Shown here in pieces: positions 46,060 through 61,594 of a stretch of 64,000 bases of DNA (its first letter is position 1; every line of letters starts with the position of its first letter). Where the stretch lies: NCBI GenBank assembly GCA_033182465.1, contig CP137319.1, positions 3,348,001 through 3,412,000 on the forward strand. The letters run 5' to 3'. The position numbers and the translations under genes are program-made. The DNA comes from Sanghuangporus weigelae. Its lineage: Eukaryota > Basidiomycota > Agaricomycetes > Hymenochaetales > Hymenochaetaceae. The notes beneath the pieces were generated by a model. It was not told the origin of the DNA and ran no database searches. It saw only the letters and a program-made list of their open reading frames with translations.

Positions 46060-46334
46060 CTCCCCCTCAAAGTGTGCGAAGTCCAAGTTCCGAAGCAAAA
46101 TGTTTGACTTTGAAAGATGGCAGAGGTTTTGTAAATATGTCGGCTGTCATGTCCTCGGTAGGACAAAACACGAGTCGAATTTTATTTTCCTCGATGAGCC
46201 ATCGAATGAAGTGATATCGAACATCGATATGTTTTGTTCGAGCGTTGAACTGACGTTCTTTGGTAATGGAAATCGCGGATTTGTTGTCAGAAAAGATGGT
46301 TGTTGGTTGAAGAGACGTCTTGAATAATTGATAA
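46060..46334 (-). pseudogene. Copia polypurine tract and C-terminal RNase H fragment of pol
   Basis: Minus strand, ending at the TGA at 46067-46069, then the polypurine tract GAGGGGGAG (46068-46060) next to the 3' LTR. The frame encodes the last part of Copia RNase H: TTIFSDNKSAISITKERQ, TKHIDVRYHFIRWLIEE, PTEDMTADIFTKPLP. It is separated from the rest of pol (58626-60055) by the 12.3-kb Gypsy insertion and rejoins it in frame when one GATAA copy is removed. Confidence 0.88.
46330..46334. repeat. Gypsy target-site duplication, left copy
   Basis: GATAA precedes the left Gypsy LTR. GATAA also directly follows the right LTR at 58626-58630. Confidence 0.9.
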
Positions 46335-47846
46335 TGTTAGGGAGTAGGCCCGGGGTTACACCGGTTTGATCCTTTTGCCTAAGCAGCGGTGTGTTGTGCA
46401 GAGGTGATCTTATCTACCCACGTCTGGCTGTACCACGCGGTCCCTTACTAGCCTTCCTAGTCGCGGTCCGAGTTATGGATGCTTTCAGATACGAGGTAAT
46501 AGTAAAGCAGATTGGGATTTCCAAAAGGCGTGATAGTACAAAGCACACAGTAATAGCTCGCTGTAGGGCAAGCTTTACACCAGTGTGTTAAGAGGATCGA
46601 AAGATGGGGAAATGAGGGCCTAATCCTACAACTATTTATGCTCCCAGATATTCCATTTTCCGTCCTATTTCTTACTCATCCTGTCTCCACTTTACTCCAC
46701 TTTCCTCCACCATTACATCTGTTCCTTTGTCATCCTGCTGCGCTTCGCTCCACTTTGCTCCAATCTTTGTAAGGTCGTCTCCACTATGACAGAATTCTTT
46801 GGAGTTGCTGACTGAGACAATAGAGGTGGTGCTCCGATATGGAATGCTCCACTGTCAGTACTCCATAACGATGTCATTGCCGTCATTGAGTGGCATCTTT
46901 GCTCTTGGAGCGATGTAGGCTGCTCGGTATGTGATTCTTCGGAATTCATCTCGAGGTCCAGCGAGGGTAAGCATAACTCGCACGTCAGTGTTAAGGTGTC
47001 GGGTCGGTGTAGAGTATGGTCCAAGGCATATCATGAACTGCATAAGCTCTGCTGGTGGGTTCTGCTGGGTTCTGGTGACTAGCCATGCTTTGCCTTCGTA
47101 TCGTATATCTCGAATGTAGCGCCATATCCTTCGTTGTATAAGGAGTTGTAATTGCTTGGTTTCCAGGTTCGCATCTCTCGGTAAATAAAGGTTTGCCTGT
47201 ATCGTAGATGCTGGGCATGGTGTGTGCAACTCCGGTCTATACCATCCAATCATTCTCCAAGTTATCGGGTTCGCAGTTCGAGGGGTTCGAGTTGTGATCG
47301 TTAGTTCCTCTCGTTTCTTGGGTACTATTGGGTTTGGTGGATTGGAATGCATTGTATCCTGAAGGTGTCGCTCGGTTTCGATGTGACAGTCACGCGTACC
47401 AACCGTTGCCGTGCATACTAAGTAGTATACTTCATAAAGGACCATGTAAACTCGTGCACAGACTTGACAGTGCTGAAATGCCAGTGAGGTCTCCATAAAC
47501 CTTATTAGCCTTTAGCCTTTTAGCGTTTAGGCTTTAGTAGTTGTGCTTCTGGACTTCTAAGAAGTTTGATCGCTTCTTTTGATCGAGGTCGCTCTGGTTG
47601 CTTGGTCGGCGGCGTTAGAGTGGTAGTCCGCGGCAATAGGCGGTCGGCGGTGTTAGCTGTTAGCGGGATTACGTATCCGCTTCGGTGCTTCTAGCGCTCG
47701 GGTGGTAACGGGTTACTGTTGCCTAGGCCGCTCGATTGCTTGGGCCTTTGATAGCTGGCTTGGTTACCGGTCGCGTTTGGAAAGCTGATCGTGTAGATCT
47801 GTTGATCGTGTCGATCCTGATGCGAGTTTTTGAGCGGATCCTTTCA
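46335..47846 (-). repeat. Gypsy 3' LTR (1512 bp)
   Basis: TGTTAGGGAGTAGG...GATCCTTTCA on the plus strand. Next to it (47847-47862) the minus strand reads CTTAGGGGGGGTGTAG, the element's polypurine tract. The long U3 carries a 213-codon ORF. Confidence 0.95.
46855..47496 (-). CDS. U3-encoded ORF in the Gypsy 3' LTR (213 aa)
   Basis: Open frame inside the LTR on the element's coding strand, lying in U3 and so downstream of pol in the genomic RNA. It starts METSLAFQHCQVCARVYMVL (with a CxxC) and has PRTANPITWRMIGWYRPELH, RRIWRYIRDIRYEGKAWLVT and ELMQFMICLGPYSTP. No known domain is recognised. An identical copy is in the 5' LTR at 57634-58275. Its position recalls U3-located accessory genes of some retroviruses. 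Whether it is translated is not shown by the sequence. Confidence 0.5.
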   Translation of the reverse strand: METSLAFQHCQVCARVYMVLYEVYYLVCTATVGTRDCHIETERHLQDTMHSNPPNPIVPKKREELTITTRTPRTANPITWRMIGWYRPELHTPCPASTIQANLYLPRDANLETKQLQLLIQRRIWRYIRDIRYEGKAWLVTRTQQNPPAELMQFMICLGPYSTPTRHLNTDVRVMLTLAGPRDEFRRITYRAAYIAPRAKMPLNDGNDIVMEY

Positions 47847-47970
47847 CTACACCCCCCCTAAGATGAACTTTCGGAGAAATGTTCATCCTAATCCGTGAGA
47901 AAGCTCGGATAAAGGGTCGCCTAGTGATGGTTGATTTTTGCTATCAAACCATCATCATCTCTGCTCCAAA

Positions 47971-48286
47971 ATGTCGAAAGTCGCCGCTGCTGTTACTGTT
48001 TTTGTCGTTATTGTCGCGATTTTCGGCATAAATCATTGGATTTTGGAGCGTAAGAGGCGTGCTCAGGTAAGTGATGCATGCTCTGTGCCGTTTCGAGTTG
48101 TTAATCATCCTCTAGGAGGCTGACTTCGAAATGCAATCGTTCCAGCGCGATGTTACTACTGTCGCGCTTCGAGTTCACCTTGCGCTCGGTTATGACGTTG
48201 AGGATATCGATCCAGTCGTCGAAAATGCAGGTATTGCTTCGCAGGAACGTCGTGAAAAGGGTGTCTGGGAAGACATTGACTTGTAA
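47971..48286 (+). CDS. antisense spliced gene for a small single-pass membrane protein inside the Gypsy
   Basis: Runs opposite to the element, in the 3' internal region between ORF3 and the 3' LTR. Exon 1, 47971-48066 (32 codons): MSKVAAAVTVFVVIVAIFGI, a strong TM segment (about residues 4-22), then NHWILERKRRAQ, a basic stop-transfer. Intron 48067-48115 is 49 bp with a consensus donor GTAAGT and acceptor CTCTAG. Exon 2, 48116-48286: EADFEMQSFQRDVTTVALRV, then LALGYDVEDIDPVVENAGIA and an acidic end (WEDIDL, TAA). The protein is 88 residues, likely N-out/C-in or signal-anchored with an acidic soluble tail. Splicing removes the exon-1 readthrough stop and opens 56 codons, which is unlikely by chance. 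No family recognised. Confidence 0.68.
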
Positions 48287-48825
48287 AGGGTGGTGGGAAG
48301 GGATATGAATATGAAATGTGCATCATGTAAAGAATATGACGCTATTGAAAGTGATAAGAAAGAAATCATAAAGTCGTTAATGAATAAGTTTTATACCAAT
48401 TTGGGAGTGAAGTTCCAGGTGTTTACCTACGGCTCTTCAACCCCCAAATGGAGTTTTTCGAAGAAAGAGTGTAATTGGAGTGCTTTTCAGCGTGAAGGCA
48501 CATCCTAGCATGATGCAAGGGAGTGACTTCACGTAAACTTTTGGCTTCTCCGTTGCATAGAGGATAATAAAAGGTAGGCATAATCTGCTAATTCGGAGCC
48601 GGCACAATAAAACAATATACAAAATGTCTAGGCCCTTGTAGGTTCTTTGACACTTCTGCATAGTGCTTCATTTGTGCTGGTTGGCCGAATAAGCGTGAAA
48701 TAAAGAGGTGCATAAAGCATAATTTGGTCGGATGTGACCATAAATATCATAAGGTAAGAATGAAATGCATAATTGACCATGTCGGGTCACGATATGGGAA
48801 AGGGGTCGCATAAAAGAAGAGTTGT

Positions 48826-49824
48826 TTACAAATCTTCGGATTCTTCAGCCTCAGGTGTAGTCTGGGCCGAGTTCGCTGGGGTATATAGTTCCCTGCTTTC
48901 ACCTTCTTCACTTGACTCTGTATCGTCGGAGTGTATGTACATGTCCTCCTGTTCTGACATAGTAAGCATCTCGTCCGGTTGGTAGAGTTCGTTCGGGTAC
49001 TGGTAGACTGAGATCATCAGATCTTCCAGCAATGGGTGTCGTGTAGCCTGTAGTTTTTCTCTGGCTTCTTCCTCTCGGTTGTTGAGTTCCATAAGGTAAT
49101 GAGGGTCGTAGTTAACCTCTTTGCCTTCGACTACGTGGTGTTCGATGTTGTCGAGTGGTACCTCGTCCGTAGTGGAGTTCCTCGCTTCAATAACCGTTCG
49201 GTATCTCGTTCCTTCGTAATACTTCGTCATGTTGAGTACCGTCATGAACTGCATGGTGTGGGATGCATAGAAGCCCGTCTGGTCGGCTATGTATATAATG
49301 TACTTCATCGCATCGATGCTCATCGGATGATAGTGACTCCATCGCATCATTCGGTTGAGAATTGCGGTAGTCATGTCTCGTCGGTAGGCGCAAATTTGAA
49401 TTGCCGAATGATAGATGCCCATGATGTTCTTGTATGTCGTTTCGTGCCTAAAGTCGATCTTGCCGCGGTGTAATGCTTGTGTTTCGAGTTCGATCGCGTA
49501 GGTTAGAAATGCATCATCATTGAGTCGGCGTAATGCTGCGTCTCGAGGGTTACTGAGTTTGAATAACCACTCGTCTGAGTGATTCGCCATCATAAGATGG
49601 GGTATTTCGTCTCGGTTGTGGTGGACTGCGTTCCACTTGTCGAATAGATCATCGAAGTACTTCCCTGGGCATAGGGGTACAATCTCATCTTCGTAGTTCT
49701 CTTCGTTGAATCGGTTGCACAGCTGTGGCCATTGATAACGTTCGGTCGGTGGCCTGAGTGTAAATGTCCATTCTGGTGCATCTTCTGGTTGACAGAATGC
49801 ATGTAGCTCGTCGAAAATAGGCAT
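48826..49824 (-). CDS. Gypsy ORF3 downstream of pol (332 aa), unknown
   Basis: Open frame on the element's coding strand about 255 bp after the pol stop, the position of env in some Gypsy lineages. It has no signal peptide or TM, so it is not an envelope-type protein. Features: MPIFDELHAFCQPEDAPEWT, NRMMRWSHYHPMSIDAMKYI, YIADQTGFYASHTMQFMTVL, and a Glu/Ser-rich acidic C-terminus (SDDTESSEEGESRELY). No family recognised. A short upstream frame starting at 49903 (MENFELNEQQLE) may be an alternative first segment. Confidence 0.6.
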   Translation of the reverse strand: MPIFDELHAFCQPEDAPEWTFTLRPPTERYQWPQLCNRFNEENYEDEIVPLCPGKYFDDLFDKWNAVHHNRDEIPHLMMANHSDEWLFKLSNPRDAALRRLNDDAFLTYAIELETQALHRGKIDFRHETTYKNIMGIYHSAIQICAYRRDMTTAILNRMMRWSHYHPMSIDAMKYIIYIADQTGFYASHTMQFMTVLNMTKYYEGTRYRTVIEARNSTTDEVPLDNIEHHVVEGKEVNYDPHYLMELNNREEEAREKLQATRHPLLEDLMISVYQYPNELYQPDEMLTMSEQEDMYIHSDDTESSEEGESRELYTPANSAQTTPEAEESEDL

Positions 49825-50078
49825 AGCTGAGTAGTGGTTCGTCTGCAGTGAAGTAGAGCTGTTGAGATTCGAGTTGTTGTTCGTTCAGCTCGAAGTTCTC
49901 CATGTTTTATACCATCTTGTTGGTATGTCGGCGATGTCTTGCCTAATTCTTCTATCTCTGCTCTCGCTTTGGTGTGCCACATTGATGTCATCGCTTGGTA
50001 AGGTCATTGGGGACCTTACTCATCGTCTCTATTGTGGATCCATAAGCGGCTCCATCGGGTGGAGTGCATGTGATGCAA

Positions 50079-53000
50079 CTATTGCCTCATTCGTTTTCGT
50101 GCGGCGATCCATTGGTTAAGGTTCGGTGGCTGGATTGCCTGAGGATACTTTTTATGGAATGCTTCGATCATTTGATAGGAGTTCTTGAGGTTGTCAAGTG
50201 GCTCCCATGTTCGCTCCTGGTATCCTTTCCATTGGATAAGGTATTGGACCTTGCTCCGATGACGTCTTGTATTATGAATCGTCTCCACTTCGTACTCTGC
50301 TTCTCCCTCCACTTCAATAGGTGGTGGTTCATCCAAAGTGGGTCTTCCAGGGTATTCCTTTCGTTTGTAAGGCCTGAGAAGGCTCGCATGAAACACTGGG
50401 TGGATCGGAAGGGTTTCGGGTAAGCGTAATCTGAATGACACTTGTCCGACTGCCTTCTCGACTTTATAAGGCCCTGCCCATTTCATTGCAAGTTTCTTCG
50501 TTGGTTCCAATCGACTGAGATTCCTCATGTCTAGTAACACTTCGTCTCCTGGCTTGTACTCCGGCAGTTTGCCTCGATGCAGGTCTGCATAAAGCTTCAT
50601 TGCCTCATTCGCTTGCCTAATCGAATTATAGGCTTCTTGCTGTACTTGTCGAAGCTCCTCTAGGTGATTTATTGCTTCTGGGACGTTTGAATCACCGGTC
50701 TCCGCAACGTCCAGGTGAGGATGCCATCCATACAGTGTATAGAATGGTGACTGATGTGTAGTACTGTGCTTCCTGTTGTTGTAGGCGAATTCTGCTATAT
50801 CGATGTACTCTGCCCAATCTGTTTGTCGGTAGGACACATAGCAGCGTAAGTACTGTTCAAGCTCTTGATTTAGTCGCTCGGTTTGACCATCGGTTTGTGG
50901 ATGATACGCTGTACTAGTTTTCCAATCGACATCGATGAGTCTGCAGAACTCCTTGAGGAATTGCGCGGTGAAGTTGCTACCTCGGTCGGAGATTACTCGT
51001 TTAGGGGCCCCGTAGTATTTGAAGACATGTTGGCGGAACAAACGTGCCAACTGCTTAGCATTGGGTATTCCTTGGCAAGGAATGAACTTCCCCATTTTAG
51101 TGAGTTTGTCCACTATAACGAGTATCACACTGTAGCCTTCATTGCTGACTGGTAAGTCGGTAATCAGGTCACAGGTTATGGTTTCCCATGGTTGATGTGG
51201 TGCCTCCAACGGTTGGAGCGGCGGATTTCGAAACTGTCGAATCGGTTTTGCACGCTGACATATGTCGCAGGTTGCGGTATATGCTCGGATCATTTCTTCC
51301 ATCTTCGGCCAATAGTATGATCGCTTTACAAGCTCTATGGTCTTTTCTGCTCCTGGGTGGCCTGCAAGTTTGTGATCATGGCGCCTTCGGATTAGCAACG
51401 CTCGTAGGTTGGCGGACGGCGGGATATATAATGCATTGGTTACGTAGTGCAAGCCGTTCCTGTAACTGTAGCCGTTGCTCTGCTTGATCGCCTGAATTTC
51501 CTTCTTAGCCTCCTCGGTATGGTAGTTCCTCTTGATCGTTCGGATAATAGGATCAGAGATAGTGACCGTTTCAGTTTCTAGCTTGTATAGACCGTTGATC
51601 TCTGTGCGTCGCAATGTTTGTTGCTTGATCGTATCAGGAGGTAATAAGGTAACTCCTAAGTTGTCCTTGTCCTCTGGCATATAGTCGGATCGTCGTGATA
51701 GCTCGTCAGCTTGGTTCTTCTTGCCTGGCCAATGGAGAATCTTGAAGTTATATCGTGATAACTCTAGTGCCCATCTTGCTTGACGTCTCGATAGATTCTG
51801 AGCTGTCATGAAGTATCGGAGGTTTGCATGGTCGCTTCGGATTGTTACTGGTTCTTTGGTTCCCTCCAATAGGTGTCTCCAATGCTTGAGTGCTTCCATG
51901 ATTGCTAGCATCTCTTTGTCATGCGTCGGATAGTTTCGTTGGGTGTTTGTTAGAGTTTTCGACATGAAACCTAAAGGTCTCAGTTCTCCTTGGTTGTCTT
52001 CTTGTTGTAAGACTGCACCAATCGCTACATCGGATGCGTCGGTTTCCAATGTGTATGATTTGTCTGGCTTTGGCATTGCCAATGCGACTTCCGTTTCGAA
52101 TGCCTTCTTGATACTTTCGAATGCCTTGTCTTGTGCCTCTGCCCATATGAACTTGCGATCCTTTTTGATAAGGTCGCCAATAGGTGCGAATGTATCGGCA
52201 TAGTTCCTGATGAATCTTCGGTAGAAGTTACAAAATCCTTGGAACTTTCGAACTTGTCGTTTCGTCTTTGGCACTGGCCATTCGTGAATAGCTTTGAGCT
52301 TATAAGGATCCATCTGGATGCCTTTCGTTCCTACTACAAATCCCAAGTAGTCGAGCTGGGTTTGGAGGAAGTGACATTTCTCGATTTTGAGGTAAATGTC
52401 GAGCTCTCGGCATTTCTGTAGAATTGCCCTGAGGAGTTTCCAATGTTCCTCTTCAGTTTGTGCTTGACCAATAAGGTCGTCCAAATAGTTGAGTGCTTCT
52501 TCTGTCCTGAGCCAATATTCGAAGTTGTCATTCATGAATCGTTGGAATACTGCAGGTGAGTTCTTCATTCCAAACATCATGACCTTTGGCTTGTAGACTG
52601 CATTGCCAACTCGGAATGCTGCCTTCCACTCGTCTCCTTCTCGGATTCGCAGGTTGTTGTAACCTGATCGCATGTCGAGTGTAAAGAAGAATTTTCCTTT
52701 CTCCAGTTTCTCTGGGAGAACACTCATGATCGGTATCGGGTATGGATCTGATACTGTCGTGTCGTTGATGTCTCGGTAATCGGTTACTGCTCGTGCTCCT
52801 CCGTCTTTCTTTCCTACAAAGAAGACTGGTGCTGCTACCGGACATGGTTCATGTGGTTGAACCTTTTCAATCCATCCTTTGTCAAGTAACTCTTTGACAT
52901 AAGCATCGAGTGCTGCCTGCTCTTCTCGTGTGAGCTTGATAATAGGCCTTGGTTTCGGTAATGGTACTCCTTCTTTGAGGTTAATCGCCATATCCCATTT

Positions 53001-54557
53001 CGTATGCTTGGGTAACCTTCTTGACTTGTCAGGATCAAAGACATCTGCGTAGTCTTCTATTTCCTTTGGTAGGAGTTTTCGCCAATCTCGTTTCTGTGTT
53101 CCTAGTAGTCCTTCTGCAGCTGCCTTTTGTTGAGAATACTGCTGGGATACTGAACTCGCTTTGTTCAGAGGCTGTGAGACTTGGTTCTGCTGCCTTGGTG
53201 ACCAATTTCGATTGATGTCTAGCTCTAGCTTTGCAGCGAGCTCTTCCTTTCTGGTAAGGGTAGCTGGTTGGTTGGTCGTCCTAAGACTTTCAATGTCTTC
53301 TGGCTCTATATCGTGCATAGGAGTGTCTTCTGTTGTCTCCTGCTCGTCTTGCATCTCGATATCGCTTTCGTTGTCTGCCCATCTTGTACGCTTCGGTGTG
53401 GGACTAGCTCCTCGCATTAACGATGCCGTTCTTGGTCGTATAATGCCTGCCACTGGCTTCTCTGGATACCGTGTCTTTCGTGGTCGTATCCTATACTTCA
53501 TGCCCGGGTTTTCTTCTGGTGATGGCCAGAGTTCTTCATCTTCCGGCATGTTTTGCCTCAGTGGGTGTATCTTCTGTGGTGGTTGTTTCTTCCAACGTTT
53601 CGGAGAGTCGTTTATTTCCTCCTGTTCGTCTAGGCTATGCTTGCCTGTTACATCTTGTGTTTCACCTTCGGATGTCTGGTACAGTTGCCGTGCTGGGATC
53701 ATCCGTCTCGGTATGTGCCTTGGTCGTCGTTGCACTATACTCGTTCCTTGTGGTGCCTGTTTCTTCCATCGCTTGGGAGTGTAGTTTATTTCCTCCTCAT
53801 CTCGATGATGCTTGTTTGCCGTTTCCTGTTGTGGCTGTTTCGTTGCAGAGTCTGGTATATTTTCCGTGCTCGGACTCTTCACTTCTGGCGTCTGTTTTGC
53901 CTGTTCCAGTCTTGGTGTTGCTGGTCTGGTTTCCGGCTTCGCTTGTGGTTTCGTTTCGTGAGAGTGTCCGTTGTTGTCTCTCCTTGGCGCAAATATTATT
54001 CCTGGTGCTCCAGAGTGTCGATAGTTGTCTCTGTCCTGAGCCTGTTGCTTCGTGTTATGCCTAGGTCTTGTCTTGTCAGGTTTGCCTTTCGTTTGCCGTT
54101 TCCGTTTGCGCTTCCTGTGCCTTCGCTTCTTGGTAGCTCGTATGACGTTGAGCTCGAATGGTATCGAATTACCATTCCGATTCCATACTTGATTCTTCCA
54201 ATCAATTTCGGGATTGACTTTGGCCAAATAGTCAATTCCTAGGATCACTTGATCCTGTCCTGTGGTTGCTACTGCCAACGTTTGTGGCTGCGGTTTAGGT
54301 CCATCAAAAATTAATGTGTAGACCTCGTGCGTGATTGCTCCTCCTTGGTTGGGACTTCCATCCGCATTATTCAAAGGTCGAGGGTGATCAAGCCTCTTTT
54401 TGAATAGGCTGTAGTGTCGTACTAAGTTGGGGTGTATCGTGCTGCATGTAGCTCCGGAATCGATTAACGCTTTGACTGCTAGGGTCTTTGTTCCAACCTT
54501 CACTCGAATAGGTAATCGGGGATGCAATGCTTGTATTGGCAATCGCTTATTGTACAT
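50079..54557 (-). CDS. pol: Gypsy chromovirus pol polyprotein (PR-RT-RH-INT-chromodomain)
   Basis: 1492 codons from the first Met. Domains: aspartic protease KALIDSGATCS (about residue 30); a low-complexity spacer; RT with FFTLDMRSGYNNLRI and YLDDLIG (catalytic YLDD, about 690); RNase H with YTLETDASDVAIGAVL; integrase zinc-binding HDHKLAGHPGAEKTIELVKR...CDICQRAK (about 1060), with core residues in TCDLITDLP, VISDRGSNFTAQFL and HPQTDGQTERLNQELE; and a C-terminal chromodomain YLIQWKGYQERTWEPLDNL (about 1430). The pol frame stays open upstream of this Met to the gag end and beyond, so pol is most likely made by -1 frameshifting at 54668-54674 rather than from 54557. All catalytic residues appear intact. 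Confidence 0.95.
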   Translation of the reverse strand: MYNKRLPIQALHPRLPIRVKVGTKTLAVKALIDSGATCSTIHPNLVRHYSLFKKRLDHPRPLNNADGSPNQGGAITHEVYTLIFDGPKPQPQTLAVATTGQDQVILGIDYLAKVNPEIDWKNQVWNRNGNSIPFELNVIRATKKRRHRKRKRKRQTKGKPDKTRPRHNTKQQAQDRDNYRHSGAPGIIFAPRRDNNGHSHETKPQAKPETRPATPRLEQAKQTPEVKSPSTENIPDSATKQPQQETANKHHRDEEEINYTPKRWKKQAPQGTSIVQRRPRHIPRRMIPARQLYQTSEGETQDVTGKHSLDEQEEINDSPKRWKKQPPQKIHPLRQNMPEDEELWPSPEENPGMKYRIRPRKTRYPEKPVAGIIRPRTASLMRGASPTPKRTRWADNESDIEMQDEQETTEDTPMHDIEPEDIESLRTTNQPATLTRKEELAAKLELDINRNWSPRQQNQVSQPLNKASSVSQQYSQQKAAAEGLLGTQKRDWRKLLPKEIEDYADVFDPDKSRRLPKHTKWDMAINLKEGVPLPKPRPIIKLTREEQAALDAYVKELLDKGWIEKVQPHEPCPVAAPVFFVGKKDGGARAVTDYRDINDTTVSDPYPIPIMSVLPEKLEKGKFFFTLDMRSGYNNLRIREGDEWKAAFRVGNAVYKPKVMMFGMKNSPAVFQRFMNDNFEYWLRTEEALNYLDDLIGQAQTEEEHWKLLRAILQKCRELDIYLKIEKCHFLQTQLDYLGFVVGTKGIQMDPYKLKAIHEWPVPKTKRQVRKFQGFCNFYRRFIRNYADTFAPIGDLIKKDRKFIWAEAQDKAFESIKKAFETEVALAMPKPDKSYTLETDASDVAIGAVLQQEDNQGELRPLGFMSKTLTNTQRNYPTHDKEMLAIMEALKHWRHLLEGTKEPVTIRSDHANLRYFMTAQNLSRRQARWALELSRYNFKILHWPGKKNQADELSRRSDYMPEDKDNLGVTLLPPDTIKQQTLRRTEINGLYKLETETVTISDPIIRTIKRNYHTEEAKKEIQAIKQSNGYSYRNGLHYVTNALYIPPSANLRALLIRRRHDHKLAGHPGAEKTIELVKRSYYWPKMEEMIRAYTATCDICQRAKPIRQFRNPPLQPLEAPHQPWETITCDLITDLPVSNEGYSVILVIVDKLTKMGKFIPCQGIPNAKQLARLFRQHVFKYYGAPKRVISDRGSNFTAQFLKEFCRLIDVDWKTSTAYHPQTDGQTERLNQELEQYLRCYVSYRQTDWAEYIDIAEFAYNNRKHSTTHQSPFYTLYGWHPHLDVAETGDSNVPEAINHLEELRQVQQEAYNSIRQANEAMKLYADLHRGKLPEYKPGDEVLLDMRNLSRLEPTKKLAMKWAGPYKVEKAVGQVSFRLRLPETLPIHPVFHASLLRPYKRKEYPGRPTLDEPPPIEVEGEAEYEVETIHNTRRHRSKVQYLIQWKGYQERTWEPLDNLKNSYQMIEAFHKKYPQAIQPPNLNQWIAARKRMRQ

Positions 54558-54661
54558 CGCTTCACTGGGGTTGAACCCAGGAGGTTTGAAACACTGGTTG
54601 TTGAAACCTTTCTCGTCACCCTTGTTACACTCACATCGCGCAGTCTCGTTCGATGGAGGTC

Positions 54662-55750
54662 TTAGTCTTTTCCCTGTTGCTCTTTACTTGCTAGGGATTT
54701 GCGAATGTTGTTTCGGTATTCTTCGTCATGCTTGCAAGTCCATCCTGCTGATTCATCGCCTTTAGCCCATGCTACATGATCGTAGTGGACTGGCCTCCGG
54801 CAGTGTGGATCGGGACATGTTTCCTTGAAATCGATTGTTCGTGTTGTCATCGTCCTCCGTTTTACACCATTAGTCTTCTTCGGCCGCTTAGAGGAAGAAC
54901 CCTTTTGCTTCCTTGGTGCCTTGCACTCCTTTGCGTAATGTCCTGACTTTTCACAGTTGTAGCATTTGCCTCCCTTCTTCGGCAAGCCTCGGAGTGCATC
55001 TACATCCATGGCGTCTGGATCTCGTTTCGTTGTTTGTACTGGTGGTCGGAAAGATGACTGTCCGTTCGATTTGAATCTCGGGGTGTATGTTTGACTACCC
55101 ATGAGCCTTTGCCTGGCATCAGAGTTTGCTAGGTTGCTTGTCCATTCCATCCATGCATCGAGGTCGTTCTTCTCGAAAGCGTCGGGTTGTACAGATTCGA
55201 CTCGTCGTTTGACCCACATGTCTAGTCCTTTGACATAGATGTACTTGAGCATCTGCTTATCCATCGTGTCTGGTGATCGTGCTTTGAGTCGTCGGAATTC
55301 GTCGTTGTACGCCCTAATGCTTGCTCCTTTCTGCTGGATGCATAGTAGTTGGAATAGGGCTTCCTGTTCTCCGATGATCGGATGTCCTGCTCGGATCCTC
55401 ATCCAGTTCAGCATGTCCTTGAGTGATGCGAACATTCCATTTGTTGCAGCGATAATCGCAGGTACTGGTTTCAGTTTCCCATTGGCATCGAATGATGTTA
55501 GGGTATTCTTCTCTGCAAACCAATCGTAGCTGTCGCCTTCTAGTGCCGCAAATAGGCTCTTTGCGATCTCCTCCTCATCCTTGACTCCATGCTGTGCCAG
55601 CTTCGAGATACATCGACTAATCCACAGATCAATATCTTCGCTTCGCTTGCCATAGTACTTCGGAAGCTTGATGCTGTGTTTAGAGAGTTGTGTCTGAAGA
55701 GTCTGTAGTTGCTGCTCCAGTGCTTGCACCTTCTGGTCGGTTGTCGACAT
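54662..55750 (-). CDS. gag: Gypsy gag (capsid/nucleocapsid)
   Basis: 362 residues. N-terminal coiled-coil-like MSTTDQKVQALEQQLQTLQT, then the Ty3/gypsy Gag block YYGKRSEDIDLWISRCISKL...SYDWFAEKN, LFQLLCIQQKGASIRAYNDE and a CCHC zinc knuckle CYNCEKSGHYAKEC (about residue 265). The C-terminus is basic (KQKGSSSKRPKK). The start overlaps the end of ORF2 by 71 nt in another frame. The last codons (CAG GGA AAA GAC TAA) contain the slippery heptamer that leads into pol. Confidence 0.92.
   Translation of the reverse strand: MSTTDQKVQALEQQLQTLQTQLSKHSIKLPKYYGKRSEDIDLWISRCISKLAQHGVKDEEEIAKSLFAALEGDSYDWFAEKNTLTSFDANGKLKPVPAIIAATNGMFASLKDMLNWMRIRAGHPIIGEQEALFQLLCIQQKGASIRAYNDEFRRLKARSPDTMDKQMLKYIYVKGLDMWVKRRVESVQPDAFEKNDLDAWMEWTSNLANSDARQRLMGSQTYTPRFKSNGQSSFRPPVQTTKRDPDAMDVDALRGLPKKGGKCYNCEKSGHYAKECKAPRKQKGSSSKRPKKTNGVKRRTMTTRTIDFKETCPDPHCRRPVHYDHVAWAKGDESAGWTCKHDEEYRNNIRKSLASKEQQGKD
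54668..54674 (-). promoter_or_regulatory. -1 ribosomal frameshift heptamer GGGAAAA (gag-pol)
   Basis: In the gag frame the heptamer sits as G|GGA|AAA, the canonical X XXY YYZ slippery arrangement, one sense codon (GAC) before the gag TAA at 54664-54662. After a -1 slip the frame reads GGG AAA AGA CTA AGA and stays open through the protease. No ATG is needed for pol. I did not model a downstream stimulatory structure. Confidence 0.8.
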
Positions 55751-56714
55751 GATCGTAAGTGCTTATGGGCACTGCTGGTGGTGAATAGGATGGTGGTGGT
55801 GGATTCTCTGGCGCTTGGGTTGCTACTGAACCACTTGCTGGTACTGCAGGTACTGTTGGTACTTGGATGATAACCGTTCGAGGTGGGGTTCTGAGTAAGA
55901 ATGGCCTTCGTGATGCTTCTTCGTCTGAGGACACTGATTCGTCAGAACTCTGTTCCTGTTGGGCTCTCTCTCTTGGTAGAAAGTATTCCCAGCGTTGTGC
56001 TGCCTGAGCTACTTCTCGAATTCGTTGAGCGTGTTCGAGTATGTTCCTTGAGGTAGTTTCGGTTGTCTGTACCGATGTGAGTATAGCTGCGTAGGTGCGT
56101 TGACTCGACTCGATTGTTTGTCCTAGTTGGAGTAGGGCTTCTCGCAGGTTATGGATGTCTTGAACAATCCTTGGTTGATCTAGAGCTGTCCTGTTAAGCT
56201 CTCCGACTCTCGTCTCGATTGTCTGTAGTTGTTGTTCCTGAGCAGTAATCCTGTTTCGGATAGCGTTGAGCTCTCGGTCAAGTACTCCGTTTCCGTCTAT
56301 GACCCGTTGATTGAGTGCCCCTGCTGCTCGATCCAATTCCAGAGTATATCTCTCTAGAGCTGCTACCTGTGCTCCAATTCTTCGAGTAGTTGTTTCGAGT
56401 GCTTCGAATCGATCTCCTACTGCTGTCGCGTATGCTCCGGTTGGTAGACTGTTTGACTGCCCCGTGTTTGCAGTTCGTTCTTCCAGTCTTTCAACCCTTT
56501 CTTGTAGCCTTCTGATCACTGGTGGATACAATATGCTGTGGTTCGTTGTCGCGTATAGTATGTCGTGATCGCTTTCCAGACTACGTAGCCTGTTGGTGAT
56601 ATGTTGAACTCGTTCGTCGAGGGATCTAGGTGTGAACCTCGTTTGATTATCGTTCGCCCGTTCGTTCGTTCGATGACCGTTACTTCTGTTGTTGGCGTTT
56701 CCTGATCGGTTCAT
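55680..56714 (-). CDS. Gypsy ORF2: coiled-coil protein upstream of gag (344 aa)
   Basis: Starts at 56714 by an ATGA overlap with the end of ORF1. The middle part (about residues 30-215) is dense in Leu/Glu/Arg/Gln with heptad-like spacing (RRLQERVERLEERT, ERYTLELDRAAGALNQRV, ITAQEQQLQTIETRVGELN), so a long coiled coil is likely. The tail is Ser/Pro-rich (RPFLLRTPPRTVIIQVPTVP). It ends 71 nt inside the gag frame. It could be an accessory protein or an N-terminal extension fused to gag by +1 frameshifting. No known family recognised. Confidence 0.65.
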   Translation of the reverse strand: MNRSGNANNRSNGHRTNERANDNQTRFTPRSLDERVQHITNRLRSLESDHDILYATTNHSILYPPVIRRLQERVERLEERTANTGQSNSLPTGAYATAVGDRFEALETTTRRIGAQVAALERYTLELDRAAGALNQRVIDGNGVLDRELNAIRNRITAQEQQLQTIETRVGELNRTALDQPRIVQDIHNLREALLQLGQTIESSQRTYAAILTSVQTTETTSRNILEHAQRIREVAQAAQRWEYFLPRERAQQEQSSDESVSSDEEASRRPFLLRTPPRTVIIQVPTVPAVPASGSVATQAPENPPPPSYSPPAVPISTYDHVDNRPEGASTGAATTDSSDTTL

Positions 56715-57052
56715 GAACTTCGTTTCTCGCCTGATGCTTCAGGGTTATTGTTCCTTGGTGCTGTTAACCAAGTAGTTCCTTTCTCGTCGAATGTAGCAAT
56801 AGTGGAAGGGACTGCTGCTACTTTCGTGGTTGTTGTTTGCGTGCTCCCAACTGCAGGGCTACCAGATGCCTTTGCTATTAGGTACACTTCGTCGTTGTAG
56901 GGGTTATAATAGTAGATATGTGATTTAAGTGAATCGGGTTTGTCGTTCTCCAGGATGTGCACTTGTCCTGAGGATTCGATATGGGTACTAGTCTCGAAAC
57001 TAGTAACGTCGATAGGGACTTGAGGTCGACGGTCCTCGCCTCGATAAAACAC
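56711..57052 (-). CDS. Gypsy ORF1: first ORF after the leader (113 aa)
   Basis: Short frame from 57052 to a TGA at 56713-56711, which shares the TGA of the ATGA with the start of ORF2. It begins MFYRGEDRRPQVPIDVTSFE and includes SHIYYYNPYNDEVYLIAKAS. No family recognised. The 4-nt overlap is the classic layout for termination-reinitiation, which suggests it is part of a linked translation chain with ORF2. Confidence 0.55.
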   Translation of the reverse strand: MFYRGEDRRPQVPIDVTSFETSTHIESSGQVHILENDKPDSLKSHIYYYNPYNDEVYLIAKASGSPAVGSTQTTTTKVAAVPSTIATFDEKGTTWLTAPRNNNPEASGEKRSS

Positions 57053-57099
57053 TAGCCAAGAACCTTGCCCGTGAGAGGTGGTGGTAAAACTAGCGAGTG

Positions 57100-57111
57100 A
57101 TCTTTCGATCC
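57100..57111 (-). promoter_or_regulatory. Gypsy primer-binding site, self-priming type
   Basis: Minus strand GGATCGAAAGAT begins 2 nt after the 5' LTR end (57114). It is perfectly complementary to ATCTTTCGATCC inside the same LTR (minus strand 57384-57373), at the predicted RNA 5' end. It does not resemble a tRNA 3' end complement I know. This is the layout of Tf1/sushi self-primed elements. Confidence 0.72.
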
Positions 57112-57372
57112 AATGTTAGGGAGTAGGCCCGGGGTTACACCGGTTTGATCCTTTTGCCTAAGCAGCGGTGTGTTGTGCAGAGGTGATCTTATCTACCCAC
57201 GTCTGGCTGTACCACGCGGTCCCTTACTAGCCTTCCTAGTCGCGGTCCGAGTTATGGATGCTTTCAGATACGAGGTAATAGTAAAGCAGATTGGGATTTC
57301 CAAAAGGCGTGATAGTACAAAGCACACAGTAATAGCTCGCTGTAGGGCAAGCTTTACACCAGTGTGTTAAGA

Positions 57373-57384
57373 GGATCGAAAGAT
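57373..57384 (-). promoter_or_regulatory. predicted 5' end of Gypsy RNA, complementary to the PBS
   Basis: Minus strand ATCTTTCGATCC, perfectly complementary (12 of 12) to the PBS at 57100-57111. It lies 26 nt downstream of the TATA-like element, so it would be at or next to the transcript 5' end, as Tf1-type self-priming requires. Confidence 0.65.
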
Positions 57385-57410
57385 GGGGAAATGAGGGCCT
57401 AATCCTACAA

Positions 57411-57419
57411 CTATTTATG
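57411..57419 (-). promoter_or_regulatory. TATA-like element of the Gypsy promoter
   Basis: Minus strand CATAAATAG in the LTR, 26 nt upstream of the 12-nt PBS-complementary sequence. The identical site is in the 3' LTR at 46632-46640. Confidence 0.6.
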
Positions 57420-57633
57420 CTCCCAGATATTCCATTTTCCGTCCTATTTCTTACTCATCCTGTCTCCACTTTACTCCACTTTCCTCCACCATTACATCTG
57501 TTCCTTTGTCATCCTGCTGCGCTTCGCTCCACTTTGCTCCAATCTTTGTAAGGTCGTCTCCACTATGACAGAATTCTTTGGAGTTGCTGACTGAGACAAT
57601 AGAGGTGGTGCTCCGATATGGAATGCTCCACTG

Positions 57634-58275
57634 TCAGTACTCCATAACGATGTCATTGCCGTCATTGAGTGGCATCTTTGCTCTTGGAGCGATGTAGGCT
57701 GCTCGGTATGTGATTCTTCGGAATTCATCTCGAGGTCCAGCGAGGGTAAGCATAACTCGCACGTCAGTGTTAAGGTGTCGGGTCGGTGTAGAGTATGGTC
57801 CAAGGCATATCATGAACTGCATAAGCTCTGCTGGTGGGTTCTGCTGGGTTCTGGTGACTAGCCATGCTTTGCCTTCGTATCGTATATCTCGAATGTAGCG
57901 CCATATCCTTCGTTGTATAAGGAGTTGTAATTGCTTGGTTTCCAGGTTCGCATCTCTCGGTAAATAAAGGTTTGCCTGTATCGTAGATGCTGGGCATGGT
58001 GTGTGCAACTCCGGTCTATACCATCCAATCATTCTCCAAGTTATCGGGTTCGCAGTTCGAGGGGTTCGAGTTGTGATCGTTAGTTCCTCTCGTTTCTTGG
58101 GTACTATTGGGTTTGGTGGATTGGAATGCATTGTATCCTGAAGGTGTCGCTCGGTTTCGATGTGACAGTCACGCGTACCAACCGTTGCCGTGCATACTAA
58201 GTAGTATACTTCATAAAGGACCATGTAAACTCGTGCACAGACTTGACAGTGCTGAAATGCCAGTGAGGTCTCCAT
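57634..58275 (-). CDS. U3-encoded ORF in the Gypsy 5' LTR (213 aa)
   Basis: Identical to the ORF at 46855-47496. In the 5' LTR it lies upstream of the predicted RNA start and so would not be in the genomic transcript; only the 3' copy could be translated from it. Confidence 0.45.
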   Translation of the reverse strand: METSLAFQHCQVCARVYMVLYEVYYLVCTATVGTRDCHIETERHLQDTMHSNPPNPIVPKKREELTITTRTPRTANPITWRMIGWYRPELHTPCPASTIQANLYLPRDANLETKQLQLLIQRRIWRYIRDIRYEGKAWLVTRTQQNPPAELMQFMICLGPYSTPTRHLNTDVRVMLTLAGPRDEFRRITYRAAYIAPRAKMPLNDGNDIVMEY

Positions 58276-58625
58276 AAACCTTATTAGCCTTTAGCCTTTT
58301 AGCGTTTAGGCTTTAGTAGTTGTGCTTCTGGACTTCTAAGAAGTTTGATCGCTTCTTTTGATCGAGGTCGCTCTGGTTGCTTGGTCGGCGGCGTTAGAGT
58401 GGTAGTCCGCGGCAATAGGCGGTCGGCGGTGTTAGCTGTTAGCGGGATTACGTATCCGCTTCGGTGCTTCTAGCGCTCGGGTGGTAACGGGTTACTGTTG
58501 CCTAGGCCGCTCGATTGCTTGGGCCTTTGATAGCTGGCTTGGTTACCGGTCGCGTTTGGAAAGCTGATCGTGTAGATCTGTTGATCGTGTCGATCCTGAT
58601 GCGAGTTTTTGAGCGGATCCTTTCA

Positions 58626-60055
58626 GATAAACAAGTTGGCGAAGCCAAATTGCCTCTTTGGCTGCATGGGTGGCGGCAATGTATTTGGATTCGGCTGTAG
58701 AAAGCGAGATGATTTCTTGTGTTTTCGAATACCACGATATGGCTCCTCCATTCAGAATAAATACATTACCAGAAATTGCTCAACGTTCTTCCTGCATGCT
58801 TCCATCTGCGTCCGTAAAGCCTTTCAATTCACGTCCTTGAACTCCTCCGTAGGTCAACCAAAGATTTCTGGAACCTTTTAAGTATGCGAATACACATTTG
58901 ACGGCCTTCCAATGATCTGGCCCAGGGTTCACGGAAAACTTGGATAATAGCGTTACAGTAAACGCTATGTCGGGCCGAGTTGCTAAAGCCGCGTACATTA
59001 GGGACCCAATCGCCTCTCGATATGGTACGTCCCGCATGGTGCCAAGTTCTTCGGCTGAGTGTGGAGATTGCGAAGAGGTTAAACGAACATTTGGGTCCAT
59101 GGGACTGGACAGCGGTTTTAGCTCGTCAAAGTTAAATCGACGCAAGATAGCATCGATGTAGGCCCGTTGAGAAAGAGAAAGGCTTTGATTTTCGCGATTC
59201 CGAATGATTTCAATTCCGAGCAGCCAGTGAAGTGATCCAAGGTCAGTAATGTCGACATATTCTTGAAAGCGTTGCTTGAACCAAGCTATCTGGCTAGTTT
59301 CGCCACGTGTTCCAGCAATAGTAAAGTCGTCGACATGAATCACCACAATAAGAATTTTGTCTTTGTTGTGGAGGAAGAAAGCCCCGAGGTCGGCATCCGA
59401 GCAGGTAAATCCCAATTTATTACAAAGGATCCACGTGACTTTTTGATACCATTTTCGTCCAGACTGCTTAAGGCCATATATGGGTTTCTTCAGGTCGTAT
59501 ACCTCGGTTTTGCTCCTCGCATATCCTGGTGGCGGCCTCATGAATATGTCCTCTCTGTCATCAAAGTGGCCATTTAGGTAAGCACTTTTAACATCAATTT
59601 GTTCCAATTCGAGGTCGTAAAGTGCTGCCATGGCCAGGACGGCTCGGATAGTAGAAAGTTTCGCGACAGGTGCGTATGTTTCAAAAAAGTCGACTCCTGG
59701 GACTTGACTGAAACCCTGTGCCACTAACCTTGCTTTATATCATATAGGCTTCCCAGCAGCGTCCTTCTTCACCTTGAAGACCCACTTGGAACCTACGATG
59801 TTGGTTCCTTTAGGTACGTGGTCGCGTTTCTCCCATGTACCAGCTGATTCTAATGCATGTATTTCTTCTTTCATAGCTTGCTCCCACAGTCTCCATTCAG
59901 GGAGTCTTTTCGCTTCTGATAGGGAGTGTGGTTCAACGACGTCCACGTCGTCCATAGCGGCCATGAATGCATACTCCTCGTCGTAGTCGTCCACCCTCTC
60001 ATCAATCACATCCGCAGCCGCAGCTACTGCTGCGCGCATGCCCCGTGGCAGACTC
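58626..60055 (-). pseudogene. Copia pol middle part: linker, RT and start of RNase H, two nonsense codons
   Basis: Minus strand. The frame begins GMRAAVAAAADVIDERVDDY (linker), then EWRLWEQAMKEEIHALE, GSKWVFKVKKDAAGKPI, a TGA (59742-59740), then YKARLVAQGFSQVPGVDFFE, LEQIDVKSAYLNGHF, YGLKQSGRKWYQK and the catalytic IVVIHVDDFTIAG, up to LKGFTDADGS and a second TGA (58782-58780). After that the frame continues as RNase H (ISLSTAESKYIAATHAAKEA). In both places related Copia proteins usually have Arg, so CGA-to-TGA changes are likely. It is truncated on the left by the Gypsy insertion and on the right by the solo LTR. Confidence 0.9.
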
Positions 60056-61594
60056 TGTTAGGACCAGTAGTTTTAGACGAGGTGGTCAGTCTAAGCGTAC
60101 CGGAACAAGTCCCTGCTTATTCCTTCTGATGATAATTGATTGGAGATGGAACGAAGGTTATAGATGTACTACTTTAGAAGCGAGCGATAGGCTCAAGCTT
60201 GACCTCAGTAGTAGAACAGGGTTTCAATCAAAGGGTACAGTTTTCGATTGAGAGTACAAAATAATTTTGCTGAGGGACAATGCCCCGCTCAGCTGGCCCT
60301 TAAATAACCTATTTACTAAATAGTACCGACTACCTATTACTACCGACTACAGCCTTGCTATTGGTCTAGACAATATGTTTTCTCTGACACCAGTACTCGA
60401 CTCTGGTGCCAACACCGATACTTTCCTCTAGTGTTGAATCACAATACTTCTACCATATTAGGAGGGTTTGTTTGAGTCCTACTACCCCGATGCTTCGAGA
60501 AGCTTCTTCCGTGCTTCCTCCGATCCGCAATCGTTATCACATGTTAATCTCTCCTTATCTTTACCCCGCGATCCTTCTCCGTTCCCAGACGGGTTCCCAT
60601 GATAGTTGCCAAGCTATCGCTTCTCTGGCGCTCCGTTCCCGGGCTGAGCTTCTGCCGCTTAATCCTCGATCATGGGGGAGATAGTGATATCAGGGTTAGA
60701 GATCGGCAGAGCTTGCCGATCTTCTCCCGGCGAATGAGTGTACTCCGCTACACTCCTTCTGTGCCTCGCCGCGACTTCGATGTCCGATAGTTGTAGTCCT
60801 GGGCCCGTGGTTAGCCGTAGCCTCTGTCCAAAGTGCTCGCGGCCATTCCACTCATCAACTGTAATTACCCCTGGCTCTGACGCTCGCCAAGCCTGCATTA
60901 AGCGTTCTATCGCTTCTTCCGTAAGATGTTCAATGTCCGAAGGTGGCCGCTTGTAAACTGGCCAATCTACTTCCACTGCCGTGTGACTGCACAAGGTCTG
61001 GTGCCGATGCTGATTGATCCAAGCTCGCACGCCGACCTTTAATGCATAGACATCCCTATCGCTAAGCCATATGGATACCTCATGGTCGTATGCACTCATT
61101 CCGTGGTTCGGTAATGGTTGGTCTTCTGTTCGTTCCGAGGGTCCGGGCTTATGCCGAATCTTGACATCGGCTGCTTCCCTTGACACTAACCGTTCCGTGA
61201 AGTTCTTCATGAGCCATTCCGCAAGTACCCAGCTTCGTTGGTAGGCCAAGTAACAATTGGCGCACACCAAGCTCTCATGTACAAATCTTCTAGTTGCACC
61301 ACGCCGATAATGTCTTCGTTGCAGGAGTTCCGTATACCTTGCGACATTCCTTTCTTCCATCGCCGCCAGACTGCGTTCCGGCGGTGGAGTATGTCCAATG
61401 TGCATATTAGTTAGTCTTAATTGCAAATCATTAGAGTCCTCCGTGTCTTCTCCAGACGATCCGTGGTTTGCTACTCTTGAGTCGCCACCACTGTTCTGCC
61501 GTAGTAGCCTTTCGAAATAGTCTTGATTTGGCATCGCAACTCGGTGTGTAAAATTTAGCCCACGCCGCATTAGATAACCACAATTTTCGTAACA
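60056..61594 (-). repeat. solo LTR (1539 bp) of a different LTR element nested in Copia
   Basis: Begins TGTTAGGACC and ends TCGTAACA, flanked by GACTC on both sides (60051-60055 and 61595-61599). Removing it and one GACTC restores the Copia frame (AGEGSDRSLPRGMRAAVA). The size and presence of a U3-type ORF resemble the nested Gypsy LTRs, but the sequence is different. It is the footprint of an element that inserted and then lost its body by LTR-LTR recombination. Confidence 0.88.
60659..61570 (-). CDS. ORF inside the solo LTR (303 aa)
   Basis: Open frame from the first Met inside the LTR (MRRGLNFTHRVAMPNQDYFE) to the TAA at 60661-60659. It includes FVHESLVCANCYLAYQRSWV (with a CxxC) and YALKVGVRAWINQHRHQTL. 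No family recognised. It is long for chance and is the same kind of LTR-borne ORF as in the nested Gypsy, on the equivalent strand, but not obviously homologous. The longer frame to 61684 runs into Copia and is not real. Confidence 0.45.
   Translation of the reverse strand: MRRGLNFTHRVAMPNQDYFERLLRQNSGGDSRVANHGSSGEDTEDSNDLQLRLTNMHIGHTPPPERSLAAMEERNVARYTELLQRRHYRRGATRRFVHESLVCANCYLAYQRSWVLAEWLMKNFTERLVSREAADVKIRHKPGPSERTEDQPLPNHGMSAYDHEVSIWLSDRDVYALKVGVRAWINQHRHQTLCSHTAVEVDWPVYKRPPSDIEHLTEEAIERLMQAWRASEPGVITVDEWNGREHFGQRLRLTTGPGLQLSDIEVAARHRRSVAEYTHSPGEDRQALPISNPDITISPMIED

What the first reader, a model, noticed from the sequence alone, without database searches (positions are those of the whole stretch)
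47971..48286. Antisense, spliced gene for an 88-residue single-pass membrane protein inside the Gypsy
A plus-strand ORF with a textbook 49-bp intron (GTAAGT...CTCTAG) encodes a hydrophobic N-terminal segment, a basic stop-transfer and an acidic tail. It lies between ORF3 and the 3' LTR, opposite to the element. Antisense genes are rare in LTR elements, and an intron in an antisense gene would survive retrotransposition because it is not spliced from the sense RNA. It could be an env-like or regulatory factor.
Basis: partly seen in the sequence, partly recalled or inferred. Interest (0 to 1): 0.8.

Follow-up and report, generated by a model that had tools for sequence, protein, structure and literature searches.

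The report
Antisense spliced gene in fungal Gypsy
A family of jumping genes in a medicinal mushroom carries a small, spliced membrane-protein gene written backwards relative to its other genes, and natural selection has kept that protein intact, so the element seems to use it.

Summary
The window carries a young 12.3-kb chromodomain Gypsy on the minus strand. Between ORF3 and the 3' LTR lies a plus-strand, two-exon gene for an 88-residue protein with one hydrophobic segment. It was found at 109 places in this genome: 108 of 109 lack an in-frame stop, 109 keep ATG and AG acceptor, 108 an unbroken GT donor; the only gene indels (3 copies) fall in the intron. Selection acts on the spliced antisense frame: dN/dS 0.14-0.28 in five of six comparisons with diverged copies, and 33 synonymous exon variants where about 20 are expected. 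Annotated 88-aa homologues exist in Sanghuangporus baumii and S. weigelae; one S. baumii copy has the locus tag next to an ORF3 homologue. So it is a real, conserved, element-borne gene. Antisense genes in this place are known (Grande, Retand, Boty brtn). What looks new is the intron, the small membrane protein, and a 112-bp leader far better conserved than its flanks. No transcript was seen; function is inferred; an env role is not supported.

The parts
46330..46334 (.). target-site duplication GATAA (with 58626-58630)
   Evidence: flanks printed, read together
46335..47846 (-). 3' LTR (1512 bp; a 1514-bp block is 100% identical to the 5' LTR)
   Evidence: self-BLAST; ends trimmed to TG...CA by eye
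46855..47496 (-). 213-aa ORF inside the 3' LTR
   Evidence: purifying selection (22 S, 6 N, 0 stop; expected S 8.1)
47847..47860 (-). polypurine tract beside the 3' LTR
   Evidence: sequence; recognised by inspection
47847..47970 (+). leader of the antisense gene; first 112 bp strongly conserved, three predicted hairpins (about 47862-47887, 47891-47910, 47924-47955); proposed promoter/5' UTR and/or sense-strand RNA element
   Evidence: 10 of 112 changes in L041, 3 of 113 in L042; folds; motif counts
47971..48066 (+). exon 1 of the antisense gene: N-terminal hydrophobic segment and LERKRR stretch
48067..48115 (+). 49-nt phase-0 intron, GTAAGT...CTCTAG
48116..48286 (+). exon 2: acidic tail and stop
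48566..48611 (+). two AATAAA signals (48566, 48606; a third at 48699), possible poly(A) signals of the antisense mRNA; none on the minus strand between gene and ORF3
48826..49824 (-). ORF3, 332 aa, no Pfam match; convergent neighbour of the antisense gene
50079..54557 (-). pol: protease, RT, RNase H, integrase, chromodomain (1492 aa)
54662..55750 (-). gag with zinc knuckle (362 aa)
55680..56714 (-). additional sense ORF upstream of gag (344 aa; only weak matches to coiled-coil families)
57114..58625 (-). 5' LTR (copy of the 213-aa ORF at 57634-58275)

Best explanation
It is an accessory gene of a fungal chromovirus, encoded on the opposite strand between ORF3 and the 3' LTR. Proposed working: a promoter in the leader and/or the edge of the 3' LTR drives antisense transcription; the 49-nt intron is spliced; the mRNA ends at the AATAAA signals before ORF3; the product is a single-pass membrane protein with a short outside N-terminus and an acidic cytosolic tail, acting in trans in favour of the element's propagation, for instance by anchoring particles or a host factor at an internal membrane. 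The intron survives each cycle because the genomic RNA is the other strand. Shown here: the gene, its kept splicing signals, purifying selection on the spliced frame, conservation across element subfamilies and species, linkage to the element. Inferred: transcription, promoter position, membrane insertion and topology, and the pro-element role. My odds: real protein-coding gene 0.95; spliced as drawn 0.9; own antisense promoter 0.75; pro-element rather than self-limiting 0.55.
For: 109 places, 108 without an in-frame stop in the joined frame, no exon indel in 109, and all 3 indel-bearing copies with the indel in the intron. dN/dS of the window gene against diverged copies: 0.22 (L041), 0.28 (L042), 0.21 (L043), 0.21 (L044), 0.14 (L045). 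Synonymous excess in the + spliced frame. Annotated 88-aa homologues: P0001 S. weigelae 97%; P0002-P0006 S. baumii 58-64%, 23 member sequences in five clusters. In this genome 107 of 111 ORF3 matches have the gene nearby on the opposite strand. The hydrophobic segment changes residues but stays hydrophobic. Leader motifs at 110 and 105 places against 109 genes.
Against: No transcript, junction read or protein was available. L046, with six exon changes, gives dN/dS 0.58, and L041 against L042 gives 0.44. In the simulations the amino-acid identity of L043 is not significant on its own (8.1% of runs reach it; L041, L042, L044, L045: 0.24, 0.28, 0.98, 0.09%), and L042 is not intact. Minus frame 1, which has stops, also shows a synonymous excess (31 against 20.6, 37 of 10,000); I read this as wobble alignment with the real frame. 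Of 58 distinct loci compared, 52 are 97-100% identical to the window, so their intactness alone says little. One copy with 98% ORF3 lacks gene, leader and polypurine tract (L112), so a gene-less copy exists. No fold: the model is poor beyond the first helix (mean pLDDT 64.5).
Confidence: 0.6

Rival explanations
1. Self-limiting device: the antisense protein, or its transcript through double-stranded RNA or interference, restrains the element, as antisense RNA does for yeast Ty1, keeping copy number tolerable.
For: Antisense RNA from this gene would pair with the 3' part of the genomic RNA; such roles are discussed in PMC7264820 and PMC12786077 (passages).
Against: RNA pairing needs no protein, yet codons are conserved. 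The gene is present at 109 places, so restraint, if any, is leaky.
Confidence: 0.25
2. Captured host gene carried as a passenger: promoter, two exons and terminator of a cellular gene were taken up in antisense orientation, which keeps introns, and simply hitch-hike.
For: Intron, leader and + strand poly(A)-like signals form a complete gene cassette; antisense capture would explain the retained intron (inference).
Against: No host paralogue outside the element was seen, with the limits of the searches: 107 of 109 genes have their own ORF3 nearby, and the leader from the LTR edge lies beside the gene in all 60 loci (58 distinct) compared. Protein searches, which need shared 5-residue words, returned only Sanghuangporus. 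A mere passenger would not keep dN/dS near 0.2 at synonymous saturation. Capture as the origin, followed by use, remains possible.
Confidence: 0.12
3. Chance ORF: a fortuitous open frame in a young repeat, with an imagined intron.
For: Most compared copies are young (52 of 58 distinct loci at 97-100%) and share recent ancestors.
Against: dN/dS and synonymous excess in the spliced + frame, intact frame in L041 at about 75% nucleotide identity, intron-only indels, independent 88-aa annotations in another species.
Confidence: 0.03

Closest known systems
Boty-like element of Botrytis cinerea with antisense gene brtn
   Same: Fungal LTR element whose gag-pol has a chromodomain, with a small additional antisense gene between pol and 3' LTR (PMC7264820 section 5; PMC4227169 and PMC8365987 passages).
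   Different: Ascomycete. No Botrytis protein appeared in the profile search, but I did not hold the brtn sequence, so homology was not tested directly. The original paper (Virology 2011) was seen only as a reference, so whether brtn has an intron or membrane segment is unknown to me.
Antisense aORF-3R of plant Gypsy elements (Grande gene23, RIRE2, Retand TRP28, PvRetro13)
   Same: Same place and orientation; kept in most copies and across species; Grande gene23 uses its own promoter (PMC7264820, PMC11963269 passages).
   Different: Those with a described property are nuclear or probable DNA-binding proteins; here a small membrane protein with an intron. No sequence relation was found (no such Pfam domain).
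HTLV-1 HBZ
   Same: Antisense, spliced, transcribed from the 3' LTR (PMC1459196 abstract and outline).
   Different: Nuclear bZIP factor of a retrovirus; different protein type.
HIV-1 antisense protein ASP
   Same: Antisense-encoded hydrophobic membrane protein of an LTR retroelement (PMC10186651 passages).
   Different: About 190 aa, two predicted membrane spans, overlaps env; here 88 aa, one span, no overlap with another long ORF.

Membership tests
Chromovirus (chromodomain Ty3/Gypsy element) | RT, RNase H, integrase order with C-terminal chromodomain | tested here: met
   RVT_1, RT_RNaseH, rve, SH3_Tf2-1, Chromo (E 4.7e-10) in that order in the pol ORF
Antisense additional ORF between pol and 3' LTR (aORF-3R) | coding gene opposite to gag-pol, between pol and 3' LTR | tested here: met
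Antisense additional ORF between pol and 3' LTR (aORF-3R) | present in most copies and conserved like other element proteins | tested here: met
   107 of 111 ORF3 matches have it; dN/dS 0.14-0.28 in five of six comparisons of the window gene with diverged copies, 0.58 in the sixth
Antisense additional ORF between pol and 3' LTR (aORF-3R) | transcribed in antisense, from its own promoter in the one case worked out (Grande) | not testable with these tools
Boty brtn family | sequence homology to brtn | not tested
   brtn sequence not held; profile search returned only Sanghuangporus
Env-like ORF | sense orientation, large surface/transmembrane protein (feature recalled and from PMC7264820 passages) | tested here: not met
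   antisense, 88 aa, single N-terminal hydrophobic segment
Spliced gene with GT-AG intron | donor and acceptor kept across copies | tested here: met
   108 of 109 uninterrupted GT(A/G)AGT, 109 of 109 AG
Spliced gene with GT-AG intron | junction seen in RNA | not testable with these tools
   no reads; the annotated 88-aa proteins come from BRAKER3 annotation of repeat-masked genomes (PMC12001456 passages), and the passages read do not say whether RNA reads supported them

The most novel reading that the evidence does not exclude
A fungal retrotransposon with the layout of a complex retrovirus: an antisense promoter next to the 3' LTR drives a spliced membrane accessory protein, a second conserved protein is encoded inside the LTR, and further extra ORFs flank gag and pol; the strongly conserved 112-bp leader is a two-way control element serving both strands.
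Probability: 0.3. Interest if true: 0.82.

Novelty: new variant of a known kind. Interest (0 to 1): 0.6.

Why it matters
The 2020 review of additional ORFs asks for a look at antisense and spliced transcripts in LTR elements (PMC7264820, conclusion passage). This case offers a candidate with codon-level evidence, in a genus with several sequenced species. It makes a testable case for accessory, perhaps membrane-acting, genes in ordinary fungal retrotransposons, a trait mostly discussed for retroviruses.

Tried and rejected
Chance ORF: rejected on dN/dS, intron-only indels and cross-species homologues. Overlapping sense ORF as the cause of conservation: rejected; every minus frame over the region has stops, and the one minus frame open across exon 2 in the window is broken in L041 and L042. 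Env-like: rejected. A domain name: Pfam gave only weak hits (AtPDCT1_2 E 0.02, AAA_lid_3 0.029 as best of 4 of 6 members, DprA_WH 0.14, EphA2_TM 0.13); not believed. Solved structures: one weak match to a receptor transmembrane chain, E 0.59. Structure model: mean pLDDT 64.5, so no fold search was run. Viral contigs: no relative confirmed. A host donor gene: none seen, of which searches scored only part of their candidates. An idea, recalled from memory, that the protein resembles the mitochondrial PET117 family found no Pfam support and was dropped. Covariation of the leader hairpins: too few changes to be worth a test; not run. A comparison of ORF3 variants among close copies failed and was not redone.

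Full report
What is there. The window lies in a 33.87-Mb, 13-contig genome. I take it to be that fungus; the published total is 33.96 Mb, a small difference I did not resolve. The annotated S. weigelae protein P0001 comes from another assembly (tag ACEPAI, contig 2,644,339) and is not encoded exactly by any of the 109 copies here. The element at 46335-58625 on the minus strand has 1512-bp LTRs (a 1514-bp block 100% identical), a GATAA target duplication, gag with a zinc knuckle, a 1492-aa pol ending in a chromodomain, an extra ORF before gag and a 332-aa ORF3 after pol. It is a young chromovirus copy.

The antisense gene. On the plus strand, 124 bp inside the 3' LTR, an ATG opens exon 1 (47971-48066), then comes a 49-nt GTAAGT...CTCTAG intron and exon 2 (48116-48286); the product is 88 aa. 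Each minus frame over 47900-48300 has stops. One of them is open across exon 2 in the window but is broken in L041 and L042 with dN/dS 0.57-0.68, so no sense protein explains the conservation.

Copies in the genome. Exon 2 of the S. baumii protein finds 109 places, all 109 candidates scored; the tool calls such counts lower bounds. I fetched all 109. Two extra loci were duplicates (L039 = L041, L040 = L009) and were dropped; L007 is the window copy. 109 of 109 have the ATG, 108 of 109 an uninterrupted donor (104 GTAAGT, 4 GTGAGT; L048 has lost one base in it), 109 of 109 the AG; 108 of 109 have no in-frame stop, the exception being L042 with TGA at codon 83. Of 109 copies, 3 carry an indel in the gene, all three in the intron (L041 and L042 share one insertion, so at least two events), none in an exon. 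Of the 58 distinct loci compared, 52 are 97-100% identical to the window; the other 51 were not in that call. The weight therefore rests on the diverged copies.

Selection. L041 and L042 share about 75% and 74% of nucleotides with the window over the gene and its borders. Nei-Gojobori dN/dS of the spliced + frame is 0.22 and 0.28, with synonymous sites near saturation (dS 1.2-1.3); L043, L044 and L045 give 0.21, 0.21 and 0.14. L046, with only six changes, gives 0.58, and L041 against L042 0.44. In 107 close copies, 64 exon variants split 33 synonymous, 31 nonsynonymous, 0 stop; expectation with the same changes and CpG context is 20.0/41.2/2.8 (0 of 20,000 reach 33; 6 of 10,000). Four of the five other frames show no excess. 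Minus frame 1 does (31 against 20.6, 37 of 10,000); that frame has stops and I read it as wobble alignment. In neutral simulations L041's full intactness arises in 0.36% of runs. Its amino-acid identity is reached in 0.24% of runs, that of L042 in 0.28%, L044 0.98%, L045 0.09%, but L043 in 8.1%, which is not significant.

Other species. The protein search returned five, then six clusters, all 88 aa and all Sanghuangporus: P0001 of S. weigelae (97%) and P0002-P0006 of S. baumii (58-64%; 2, 18, 1, 1 and 1 member sequences). The basic LERKRR stretch and the exon-2 motif NAGIASQE are invariant in A1 while the hydrophobic core varies within hydrophobic residues; P0006, not in A1, reads LEHKRR. ORF3 relatives occur in S. 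weigelae, S. sanghuang, S. vaninii and S. baumii. The S. baumii ORF3 relative P0012 is ACEPAG_5827 and the antisense homologue P0006 is ACEPAG_5826, on contigs of the same length, 2,780,392, so the pair is very likely adjacent there too. ORF3 is 54% identical in the largest S. baumii cluster (46-73% over parts or all in the others), the antisense protein 58-64%, so the antisense gene changes no faster than its sense neighbour. No 88-aa hit came from S. sanghuang or S. vaninii; absence and missing annotation cannot be told apart. The ACEPA-tagged gene models come from BRAKER3 (PMC12001456, passages) and are not proof of transcription.

Linkage. Of 111 ORF3 matches (all 111 candidates scored), 107 have the gene on the opposite strand close by; 105 of the 108 paired distances are 545-566 bp. 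Of 109 genes, 107 have their own ORF3 within about 1.7 kb; the C9 copy has none and the copy at C5:2506024 pairs only with an ORF3 3.1 kb away that belongs to another copy. The four ORF3 matches without a gene are two fragments, one copy in which ORF3 joins the LTR directly (L112: gene and leader with polypurine tract missing) and one old copy in which gene, leader and LTR were not found in the 1.4 kb read (L113).

Leader. The first 112 bp next to the LTR differ at 10 positions in L041, and 113 bp at 3 positions in L042, whereas the adjacent LTR part matches at 76-79%, the exons at 69% and 65% and the intron differs at 17 and 13 of 49 positions. It folds into three predicted hairpins; compared with shuffles the sense strand gives z -3.0 and the antisense strand z -2.3. 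Its two core motifs occur at 110 and 105 places (up to 3 mismatches) against 109 genes. Gene conversion from young copies could also cause such an island. I favour a cis element, perhaps promoter and 5' UTR of the antisense gene as well as a sense-strand structure beside the polypurine tract; this is inference. The gap between gene and ORF3 has three AATAAA on the plus strand and none on the minus strand in the window; of 16 other copies looked at, 14 have at least one AATAAA there, one has none, and one was not located by the script.

How it most likely works. An antisense promoter yields a short spliced mRNA for a membrane protein whose topology, by the positive-inside rule (recalled), places the acidic tail in the cytosol. 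The sense genomic RNA carries the intron in reverse, so it is not lost during retrotransposition. Codon conservation argues that the protein matters, not only an antisense RNA. Whether it helps or restrains the element is open; I lean to help because the family is large and the protein is kept across subfamilies.

Known relatives. [quoted passage not shown] PMC11963269, PMC4227169, PMC8365987: passages). HBZ of HTLV-1 is antisense and spliced (PMC1459196: abstract and outline). HIV-1 ASP is an antisense membrane protein (PMC10186651: passages). In the listings I saw no report of a spliced antisense membrane-protein gene in a fungal LTR element; those listings show titles and abstract starts of the best-ranked papers in an open-licence library only, and the original brtn paper was not among them.

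Noticed in passing
46855-47496 (-) and 57634-58275 (-): The LTR itself encodes a 213-aa ORF under strong purifying selection: 37 of the 38 loci given covered it, 28 variants, 22 synonymous, 6 nonsynonymous, 0 stop; expected 8.1 synonymous, 0 of 5000 simulations reach 22. A diverged LTR in L041 is 74% identical over all 213 residues with two stops. No Pfam match. A protein gene inside an LTR is unusual (my judgement, no search made) and deserves its own study.
   Followed up: partly
47847-47958: 112-bp island of 91-97% identity between flanks of roughly 65-79% in two diverged copies, predicted to form three hairpins.
   Followed up: partly
55680-56714 (-): 344-aa ORF upstream of gag, overlapping its start; only weak Pfam matches below cut-off, to coiled-coil families.
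   Followed up: no
48826-49824 (-): ORF3, 332 aa, no Pfam match, with relatives in four Sanghuangporus species.
   Followed up: partly
gene copies L001-L111 without L039-L042: Among exon variants of the 107 close copies, 30 of 64 are C>T or G>A at CpG sites, suggesting CpG-directed decay of older copies.
   Followed up: no
58780-63107 (-): Copia-like reverse transcriptase ORF (58780-59724) and gag-like ORF with a zinc-knuckle motif (61431-63107) next to the Gypsy; recognised by eye from the translations, no search made.
   Followed up: no
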